Shown piece by piece: positions 13,514-15,274 of a DNA stretch of 64,000 bases; the first letter of the stretch is position 1, and every line of letters begins with the position of its first letter. The notes under the pieces were generated by a model that saw nothing but the letters and a program-made list of their open reading frames with translations, ran no database searches and had not been told where the DNA came from. The DNA is taken from positions 1,798,001-1,862,000 of the forward strand of contig NZ_CP093342.1 in NCBI RefSeq assembly GCF_022637555.1. The letters are read 5' to 3'. Origin of the DNA: Microbacterium sp. H1-D42 (GTDB lineage: Bacteria > Actinomycetota > Actinomycetes > Actinomycetales > Microbacteriaceae). Both the position numbers and the translations under genes were made by a program.

Positions 13514-14373
13514 CGAACTCGTTCGGCGCGCGCCTTCGGGCGGCTCTCGACGCGCACGGCCCGCTGTGCGTTGGCATCGACCCGCATGCTGCTCTTCTGG
13601 AGCAGTGGGGACTGGGGCAGGATGCCGACGGTATCCGCGCCTTCGGTCTCGGCGTGGTCGAGGCCGCCGCCGGGCGGGTGGGCGTAGTGAAGCCGCAGGT
13701 GGCGTTCTTCGAACGGTTCGGATCCCGCGGATTCGCCGCATTGGAGGACGTCATGTCGGCGGCGCGCGCCGCCGGCCTGCTCGTGCTCGCCGACGCCAAA
13801 CGCGGCGACATCGGCTCGACGATGGCCGGCTACGCGTCGGCCTGGCTCGAGCCGGGCTCGCCGCTCGAAGCTGATGCCGTGACGATCAGCCCGTACCTCG
13901 GGCCGGAGTCGCTGCGCGAGACGCTGACAGCCGCGGTGCGCGCCGAGAAGGGCGTGTTCGTGCTGGCAGCCACCAGCAATCCTGAGGCGGCTGCACTGCA
14001 GACCGCCCACACGATCGACGTGTCAGCGGGGGAGGGCGAGACAGTCGCCCAGCGCGTCGCTCGTGATGTCACCTGGGTGAACGGATCGGACGCCTTCGCA
14101 GGCGGATTGGGCCCCGTGGGTCTGGTCATCGGCGCGACAGTGGATCGCGCCGAGTTCGGTCTCGAGGACGGGCTGCTGCAGAGCACCCCCATCCTCGCCC
14201 CTGGATTCGGCGCGCAGGGCGCCACACCGGAGGAACTCATCGGACGTTTCGGGTCGCTCGCGCACAACGTGCTCGCGAGCGAGAGCCGCAGCATCCTCGG
14301 CGCCGGACCCGACGGCATCGCCGAGGCGATCAGCGCGCAGAGCGCGCGCTACCAGGAGGTTCTCCGTGGCTGA
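13510..14373 (+). CDS. pyrF: Orotidine 5'-phosphate decarboxylase
   Basis: Converts OMP to UMP. The 287-residue length and the motif LADAKRGDIGSTM, which carries the catalytic Asp/Lys pair, identify the longer actinobacterial (type 2) OMP decarboxylase. GVVKPQVAFFE and LAPGFGAQG are further active-site strands. The GTG start overlaps the carB TGA. pyrD and pyrE are not in this cluster, so those steps are encoded elsewhere. Confidence 0.96.
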   Translation: MTNSFGARLRAALDAHGPLCVGIDPHAALLEQWGLGQDADGIRAFGLGVVEAAAGRVGVVKPQVAFFERFGSRGFAALEDVMSAARAAGLLVLADAKRGDIGSTMAGYASAWLEPGSPLEADAVTISPYLGPESLRETLTAAVRAEKGVFVLAATSNPEAAALQTAHTIDVSAGEGETVAQRVARDVTWVNGSDAFAGGLGPVGLVIGATVDRAEFGLEDGLLQSTPILAPGFGAQGATPEELIGRFGSLAHNVLASESRSILGAGPDGIAEAISAQSARYQEVLRG

Positions 14374-15274
14374 CCGCCGTGCCGTTCCCGAAGTCGATCG
14401 AGCCGCCGCATCTCGGCGCGCGCTGGAGCGCCGCCGCGCTCGGGCGTCGCTGAAGCGCGACCTGTCCACGCGCGTCATCGCGCCGCAGGCGGTGCTGGCG
14501 CAGGCGATCGCGGACGCAGAGTCGGATGCTGCCACGATGCGCGTCACGGACTTCCTGATGGCTCTGCCCGCGATCGGCGCCGGCAAGCGTGACCGCGTGC
14601 TGGAGGACCTCGGCATCTCGCCGGTGAAGCGCCTCGGCGGGCTCGGCGTCCGCCAGCGCGTCGCACTGTCGGATTGGCTCGACGAGCGCTTCCCGCCGCA
14701 CGCCGCACGCGCTGGCCGCAGCCGCCTCCTCGTGCTCGCCGGTCCCACTGCCGTCGGCAAGGGCACTGTCGCCGCGCACATCCGCGAGACGCATCCCGAG
14801 ATCCACCTCTCGGTCTCGGCCACGACCAGGGCCCCGCGCCCCGGTGAAGTCGACGGCGTGCACTACTTCTTCGTCGATGACGCCGAGTTCGATCGCCTTG
14901 TCGCCGAGAATCAGCTGCTCGAGCACGCGACCGTGCACAACAAGTACCGGTACGGCACACCCCGAGGTCCGGTGGATGCCGCGCTGTCCGAGGGCAAGAC
15001 CGTGCTGCTCGAGATCGACCTGCAGGGTGCGCGTCAGGTGCGGGCTGCCGAACCATCGGCATCCCTGGTCTTTCTGCTGCCGCCGACCTGGGACGAACTC
15101 GTGAACCGGCTGGTCGGACGCGGTACCGAGGACGCCGAGGAGCGCGCCCGTCGCCTGCGCACCGCCCGCACCGAACTCGCCGCACAGAACGAGTTCGATT
15201 ACGTCGTCGTGAACGCCGACGTCGCGACAGCGGCTGAAGAGGTCGTAGAATTGTCCTCAGGCTCTGCGCGCTGA
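14366..15274 (+). CDS. gmk: mIHF DNA-binding domain fused to guanylate kinase
   Basis: A 302-residue fusion. Residues about 58-107 (MRVTDFLMALPAIGAGKRDRV, then LGISPVKRLGGLGVRQR) match actinobacterial integration host factor (mIHF/sIHF), with the helix-two-turn-helix and the arginine-rich tail. Residues 120-300 are guanylate kinase, with P-loop GPTAVGKGT (126-134), SATTRAPRPGEVDGVHYFF and the lid region. In Mycobacterium mihF and gmk are separate neighbouring genes. Gmk makes GDP from GMP. The GTG start has AGGAGG at 14354-14359, 6 nt upstream, and overlaps the pyrF stop, so one long protein is expected; internal starts giving free Gmk cannot be excluded. Confidence 0.93.
   Translation: MADRRAVPEVDRAAASRRALERRRARASLKRDLSTRVIAPQAVLAQAIADAESDAATMRVTDFLMALPAIGAGKRDRVLEDLGISPVKRLGGLGVRQRVALSDWLDERFPPHAARAGRSRLLVLAGPTAVGKGTVAAHIRETHPEIHLSVSATTRAPRPGEVDGVHYFFVDDAEFDRLVAENQLLEHATVHNKYRYGTPRGPVDAALSEGKTVLLEIDLQGARQVRAAEPSASLVFLLPPTWDELVNRLVGRGTEDAEERARRLRTARTELAAQNEFDYVVVNADVATAAEEVVELSSGSAR
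15224..15251 (+). promoter_or_regulatory. Promoter of rpoZ inside the gmk 3' end
   Basis: GCGACA (15224-15229) as -35, 16-nt spacer, TAGAAT (15246-15251) as -10. This gives rpoZ its own transcript with a leader of about 95 nt in addition to read-through from the pyr operon. Confidence 0.5.

What the first reader, a model, noticed from the sequence alone, without database searches (positions are those of the whole stretch)
14366..15274. Integration host factor fused to guanylate kinase
One reading frame joins an mIHF-type nucleoid/architectural domain (residues about 58-107) to a complete guanylate kinase. In other actinobacteria these are separate neighbouring genes. The start with AGGAGG lies before the mIHF part and overlaps pyrF, so a full-length fusion is expected. 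A nucleotide kinase tethered to a DNA-bending domain could place GDP supply on the nucleoid, or be cut into two proteins.
Basis: partly seen in the sequence, partly recalled or inferred. Interest (0 to 1): 0.7.

Follow-up and report, generated by a model that had tools for sequence, protein, structure and literature searches.

The report
Nucleoid protein fused to guanylate kinase
One gene makes a single protein that joins a chromosome-packaging type of domain to the enzyme that makes GDP; the joint gene occurs in nearly all sampled members of its bacterial family and arose at least three separate times, so it is real and old, but what the joining is for is not known.

The parts
14366..15274 (+). 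fused gene, mIHF-type domain plus guanylate kinase, 302 aa, GTG start
   Evidence: closest named relative, 90% identical, is 'guanylate kinase [Microbacterium alcoholitolerans]'
14354..14359 (+). Shine-Dalgarno AGGAGG, inside the end of pyrF, 6 nt before the GTG
   Evidence: read from sequence; pyrF lies upstream in 105 of 105 fused family loci, overlapping the chosen start in 87
14390..14683 (+). actinobacterial IHF (mIHF/sIHF) domain, residues 9-106: long basic N-terminal helix plus H2TH fold
14495..14671 (+). S13-like H2TH domain, Pfam PF22525, residues 44-102
   Evidence: 41.4 bits over cut-off 27
14627..14647 (+). motif K88-R-L-G-G-L-G94, the counterpart of RRxRGLG of free mIHF; residue 91 is Gly instead of the usual Arg
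14690..14719 (+). interdomain linker, residues 109-118; the stretch between R108 and R120 is 5-22 residues long in 105 relatives
   Evidence: model pLDDT 58 over residues 111-120
14720..15253 (+). complete guanylate kinase domain, residues 119-296, P-loop GPTAVGKGT
13510..14373 (+). pyrF, directly upstream, overlaps the fused gene by 8 nt
   Evidence: ORF; overlap; gene name by recall
15354..15608 (+). rpoZ, next gene downstream (84 aa)
   Evidence: translation; named by recall and by the mihF-gmk-rpoZ order in PMC6155035 passages

Best explanation
The gene arose when the stop codon of mihF was lost in the ancestral tandem mihF-gmk operon. It now makes one full-length bifunctional protein: this cell's only guanylate kinase, carrying at its N-terminus the cell's only mIHF-type domain. 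Shown: the anatomy, the single copies, the family-wide conservation, at least three separate origins, purifying selection on both halves. Inferred: the kinase is catalytically ordinary; the basic H2TH domain still binds nucleic acid, but more weakly or differently than free mIHF and at enzyme-like abundance, so that it holds the kinase loosely on the nucleoid and serves as a minor architectural factor, while HU and Lsr2, both present, do the bulk packing.
Against: I saw no DNA-binding, localisation or enzyme data for any fused protein. Residue 91 has lost its basic side chain, and the basic residues at 57 and 72 of free mIHF are mostly replaced in Microbacteriaceae, though acI keeps them; DNA binding could be lost rather than rewired. 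Five Microbacteriaceae genomes (G064, G085, G009, G011, G087) dropped the mIHF domain and have no other copy, so it is dispensable there. Codon usage is only a proxy for abundance: Lsr2, a nucleoid protein, scores below the fusion, and I had no proper control for free mihF genes; with this genome's codon table mihF exceeded gmk in 14 of 28 free loci, and the mIHF part exceeded the kinase part in 45 of 105 fused loci.
Confidence: 0.55

Rival explanations
1. Neutral fusion. The two genes were already adjacent and tightly spaced; a stop-codon loss joined them and could not easily be undone. Each half works as before and the joining itself has no function. (Partly compatible with the best explanation, so the odds overlap.)
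For: Free neighbours are close: in 28 of 30 fetched loci the kinase match begins 13-104 nt after the mihF stop, five of them in the same frame. The linker varies in length and sequence and has the highest dN/dS. Two of the fused clades have small genomes (acI 1.2-2.2 Mb, g230 2.2-2.3 Mb).
Against: Three separate fixations; no split back into two genes in 120 Microbacteriaceae genomes, while loss of the whole mIHF domain occurs in five; the same motif residue changed in all three lineages. A re-split needs a new start site, and the one split acI genome, G641, could be ancestral or re-split.
Confidence: 0.3
2. The N-terminal domain no longer binds DNA. It has become a structural or regulatory appendage of the kinase, or binds RNA or the ribosome like its S13 relatives.
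For: Fused domains score about 55-77 bits on the mIHF model where bits were printed, some below the cut-off of 60, against 133-149 in the listed rows for free mIHF of the same order; the third basic residue of RRxRGLG is lost in 135 of 136 fused rows; residues 57 and 72 mostly replaced in Microbacteriaceae; Pfam calls the domain S13-like H2TH.
Against: Low score alone means little: four free mIHFs beside gmk in other classes score only 71-79 bits. The other basic positions are invariant or nearly so (R23, R26, K30, R59, K/R74, K88, R89) and the domain is strongly basic. 12 of 90 free mIHFs also lack the third basic residue.
Confidence: 0.2
3. The protein is cut after translation, or a second start is used, giving separate mIHF and kinase.
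For: The linker is variable and of low confidence in the model, so it may be open to proteases. In two overlapping windows (codons 42-74) 45 of 105 loci have a start with a Shine-Dalgarno-like match, but that lies inside the H2TH domain.
Against: Start plus Shine-Dalgarno match near the linker in only 10 of 105 loci, within the range of other windows (3-72); in this gene itself none of the in-frame starts from codon 43 to 123 has such a match. The one promoter-like site found lies at the end of the gene (15224-15251), not before the kinase. Protease sites were not searched for.
Confidence: 0.06

Closest known systems
mIHF (Rv1388) and sIHF (SCO1480), the actinobacterial IHF family, NCBIfam NF041260
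   Different: Fused to the kinase; motif KRxGGLG instead of RRxRGLG; not codon-optimised like an abundant protein, whereas mIHF is reported among the ten most abundant M. tuberculosis proteins (PMC6155035 passages).
Bacterial guanylate kinase (Gmk), TIGR03263; M. tuberculosis Rv1389, PDB 1znw, 1s4q
   Different: Carries about 118 extra N-terminal residues with a DNA-binding-type domain. GKGT in the P-loop is also common in split relatives, so it is not a mark of the fusion.
mihF-gmk-rpoZ operon of Mycobacterium tuberculosis
   Same: Same gene order; deleting mihF there needed gmk and rpoZ supplied on the complementing construct (PMC6155035 passages).
   Different: Two separate proteins there, one here.
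MAGUK and other multidomain guanylate-kinase proteins of eukaryotes
   Same: Guanylate kinase domain attached to other domains (hits).
   Different: Unrelated partners and, by recall, mostly inactive kinases; here the kinase is the genome's only one.

Membership tests
actinobacterial IHF (NF041260, mIHF/sIHF) | curated model score of at least 60 bits | tested here: met
   64.5 bits, residues 10-103; 67.7 in the genome search. Three divergent fused relatives among the 11 genomes fall just below (55.1-57.8)
actinobacterial IHF (NF041260, mIHF/sIHF) | long N-terminal helix plus H2TH fold | tested here: met
actinobacterial IHF (NF041260, mIHF/sIHF) | basic residues of the first helix and the Gln after the GLG turn | tested here: met
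   R23, R26, K30 and Q97 present and invariant in 105 of 105 fused relatives
actinobacterial IHF (NF041260, mIHF/sIHF) | third basic residue of RRxRGLG (usual but not universal: 78 of 90 free members) | tested here: not met
   Gly91 here; basic in 1 of 105 Microbacteriaceae, 0 of 29 acI, 0 of 2 of the third lineage. Not a strict defining feature, as 12 of 90 free members lack it; the domain is filed in the family by score and fold, not as a functional equivalent
actinobacterial IHF (NF041260, mIHF/sIHF) | binds and bends DNA, highly abundant nucleoid protein | not testable with these tools
   codon usage argues against high abundance but is indirect
guanylate kinase (TIGR03263) | curated equivalog score of at least 160.45 | tested here: met
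   215 bits, residues 120-296
guanylate kinase (TIGR03263) | P-loop and conserved GMP-site region intact | tested here: met
   GPTAVGKGT; S149, R155, R158, E161, Y167, E186, Y196, T198, D218 invariant in the 31-row alignment; their roles are recalled
guanylate kinase (TIGR03263) | phosphorylates GMP | not testable with these tools
   only match over the guanylate kinase cut-off in the genome, so very probably active

The most novel reading that the evidence does not exclude
The fusion makes the nucleoid contact of an architectural domain depend on guanine-nucleotide state: closing of the kinase on GMP and ATP, or its occupation by (p)ppGpp, changes how the tethered H2TH domain holds DNA, so that one protein senses the GMP/GDP/ppGpp balance and adjusts local chromosome structure; the repeated fusions and the repeated change at motif residue 91 would reflect selection for that coupling.
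Probability: 0.1. Interest if true: 0.85.

Novelty: new variant of a known kind. Interest (0 to 1): 0.5.

Why it matters
mIHF is essential in M. tuberculosis (PMC6155035 passages) and guanylate kinase is called essential in the abstract listing of PMC5686395; in this genome they are one polypeptide with no spare copy. Three separate fusions, one across a large soil, water and plant family and one across the freshwater acI lineage (habitats and abundance recalled), suggest that an adjacency long read as a plain operon may carry a functional link between nucleotide supply and the chromosome. Readable source names for the fused proteins say 'guanylate kinase', apart from one 'hypothetical protein' label, so a search by name would miss the mIHF of these organisms. 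Whether a nucleoid protein can be demoted to enzyme-level abundance is directly testable here.

Tried and rejected
Split into two genes or frameshift: rejected. 'Stops inside' reported for some Microbacteriaceae matches proved to be at the C-terminal end, and in the acI and g230 loci no stop lies between the domains.

Internal start before the kinase: not supported. Second mIHF or kinase gene in this genome: none; the weak second mIHF hit (19 bits) lies at the ribosomal protein S13 gene (S13 named by recall from its sequence).

Adenylate-kinase-like P-loop GKGT as a mark of the fusion: rejected, as it is common in split relatives.

Low mIHF-model score as a mark of the fusion: weakened, as four free mIHFs of other classes also score 71-79 bits.

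Foldseek's listed top 50 were all kinases; the sIHF match came from the VIA-align second look. Codon comparison of free mIHF and gmk in other genomes was uninformative, because it used this genome's codon table. P0122, the top profile hit, is a tandem kinase duplication without mIHF and was dropped.

Literature: ten searches listed no paper that I could recognise as describing the fusion; the library lacks most subscription papers, among them Swiercz 2013 and the JBC record PMC4256362. Of papers I saw passages of five (PMC4255298, PMC3724605, PMC6155035, PMC10028186, PMC7839047) and otherwise listings; none was read whole.

Full report

Copy number and setting. In this one-contig, 99.99% complete genome there is no other mIHF-type gene (second hit 19 bits, S13-like) and no other guanylate kinase (second hit 10.9 bits). 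Each of the 20 genomes of this family in the order sample also has exactly one mIHF match. Lsr2 and HU are present here, one match each. pyrF lies upstream of the fused gene in 105 of 105 fetched fused loci, overlapping the start I chose in 87. rpoZ follows. The gene order is the mihF-gmk-rpoZ order of M. tuberculosis (PMC6155035, passages).

Distribution. I sampled 120 genomes of the same family (78 genera), which I call Microbacteriaceae from the named protein hits (Microbacterium, Leifsonia, Herbiconiux, Rathayibacter and others). 115 of 120 give one match that spans both domains; the five others (G064, G085, G009, G011, G087) match the kinase only and have no mIHF elsewhere. I fetched 110 of these 120 loci: 105 fused, 5 kinase-only. 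In an order-level sample of 297 genomes the spanning matches without a stop belonged only to this family among the listed rows, which are capped; nine of the spanning matches with a stop in other families were fetched and are all two genes. Six 'stop' cases within Microbacterium were C-terminal stops.

A second and a third origin. In a class-level sample of 296 genomes, 30 belong to a small-genome family (coded f39, 1.2-2.2 Mb), of which 29 are fused and one (G641) has two genes. f39 is Candidatus Nanopelagicaceae (acI): four contig lengths equal those of Ca. Planktophila lacus MMS-21-148, IMCC26103, IMCC25003 and IMCC19121, and all 80 named loci kept with an f39 query are fused (79 by pattern, the last by reading); the two sets overlap. 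In family f45 (16 genomes in the sample) both genomes of genus g230 are fused, 8 others have two genes and 6 have no mIHF match. In the phylum sample of 198 genomes the listed rows, which are capped, hold 34 spanning matches outside this class, all with a stop; 15 were read and 19, and all 34 are two genes. A kinase tree (147 rows; 18 of the 105 Microbacteriaceae used) puts the three fused groups in three separate places, each on one branch (SH-aLRT 98 for Microbacteriaceae, 91 for acI, 98 for g230), with the split G641 beside acI. A quick tree of 138 kinases fits one gain and two losses in Microbacteriaceae, with long branches making details unsure. Three gains is the reading of these trees; transfer of a fused gene between the groups was not tested formally.

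Ancestral state. Of 30 free mihF loci in the order, 28 have the kinase match starting 13-104 nt after the mihF stop, five of them in the same frame; the other two had no kinase in the stretch held. A stop-codon loss, in frame or with a small indel, would be enough to fuse them.

Selection. Among 12 Microbacterium genes (66 pairs) median dN/dS is 0.24 for the mIHF part, 0.40 for the linker (59 unsaturated pairs) and 0.18 for the kinase. In 105 fused proteins R23, R26, A27, K30, G71, L93 and Q97 never vary; K88 is kept in 103, R89 in 99. The mIHF part has net charge +8 (median, range 3 to 18), the kinase -7 (-14 to -2); free mIHF +6 (2 to 9).

What changed on fusion. The motif RRxRGLG of free mIHF becomes mostly KRxGGLG in Microbacteriaceae and RRxQGLG, RRxAGLG or RRxGGLG in acI. 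Residue 91 is basic in 78 of 90 free rows but in 1 of 105, 0 of 29 and 0 of 2 fused rows of the three lineages. In the 80 named acI loci three have Lys there, so the loss is not absolute. These counts are of sequences, not events: there are three fusion events, and free lineages lost the residue too, some of them in family f45. Residues 57 and 72, usually basic in free mIHF, are mostly replaced in Microbacteriaceae but kept in acI, so residue 91 is the one shared change among those I looked at. By position it is the third of three arginines (R170, R171, R173 in an old numbering) that I recall as needed for DNA binding by M. tuberculosis mIHF; that paper was not held. On NF041260 fused domains score about 55-77 bits where bits were printed and free ones of the order 133-149 in the listed rows, but free ones beside gmk in other classes go down to 71-79, so a low score is no mark of the fusion.

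Expression proxy. Against this genome's ribosomal-protein genes (18 genes, CAI 0.662-0.818), the fusion has CAI 0.561 (mIHF part 0.621, kinase part 0.521), pyrF 0.525, carB 0.743, rpoZ 0.771, HU 0.801, Lsr2 0.415. [quoted passage not shown] tuberculosis (PMC6155035 passages). The fusion thus looks like an ordinary enzyme in abundance. This is indirect: Lsr2, a nucleoid protein, scores lower still, and the matching test for free mihF was not done with each genome's own table (with this genome's table mihF exceeded gmk in 14 of 28 free loci).

One protein or two. Near the linker only 10 of 105 loci have an in-frame start with a 4-base Shine-Dalgarno match, within the range of other windows of the gene (3-72). 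A fused partner does not abolish mIHF function: msIHF fused to fluorescent proteins replaced the essential native protein in M. smegmatis (PMC10028186 passages).

Mechanism. Most likely one full-length bifunctional enzyme with a retained but rewired nucleic-acid-binding domain. The tether, the binding and any coupling to nucleotide state are inference. Neutral fusion of two close neighbours is the strongest rival; repeated origin, lack of observed re-splitting in 120 family genomes and the recurrent motif change speak against it without excluding it. The odds given overlap, since a neutral fusion could also keep DNA binding.

Known or new. Each half is a known family. The architecture is visible in databases (precomputed Pfam pairs; NCBIfam types NF041260 as an 'equivalog_domain'), but readable source names in the two top-120 lists say guanylate kinase, apart from one 'hypothetical protein' label. 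Ten literature searches in an open-licence library listed no description; it may exist in papers not held. I rate it a new variant of a known kind.

Noticed in passing
L153 (G064), L155, L157, L159, L160: Five Microbacteriaceae genomes have a free kinase and no mIHF match beyond S13-like ones; in G064 an Ala/Thr/Pro-rich stretch precedes the kinase where the mIHF domain would be.
   Followed up: partly
L230, L232, L234, L236, L238-L240, L242, L243: mIHF appears lost in nine loci of small-genome lineages of the class (families f22, f45, f49), and many f4 genomes of the order sample lack it (14 of the 20 listed no-match rows are f4).
   Followed up: no
L304, L313, L337, L364, L376, L351: Public records titled 'MAG: Bifidobacterium breve' (five) and 'Streptomycetaceae bacterium' (one) encode acI-type fused proteins 63-81% identical to that of Ca. 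Planktophila lacus; these titles look wrong.
   Followed up: no
P0122: A 388-residue metagenome protein with two near-identical guanylate kinase copies in tandem and no mIHF; may be an assembly artefact.
   Followed up: no
family loci, codons 42-74 of the fused gene (window 14489-14587): In two overlapping windows 45 of 105 fused genes have a start codon with a Shine-Dalgarno-like match inside the H2TH domain; this gene itself has none there. Perhaps only the Glu-Gly codons near position 55; not tested.
   Followed up: partly
G013 (L158), 927,303-base contig: A strongly reduced genome of the same family, of the size I recall for Tropheryma whipplei, keeps the fusion at 44% identity.
   Followed up: no
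L396, L397, L400 (G767); L393, L398 (G727); L395, L399 (G817): Three genomes of other classes of the phylum hold two or three mIHF-like matches, one of them next to gmk.
   Followed up: no
PMC7839047, Table 4: A Clavibacter secretome paper lists a 10 kDa 'Integration host factor' (AJW80270.1); by size it is not the fused protein and may be an HU-type protein; not checked.
   Followed up: no
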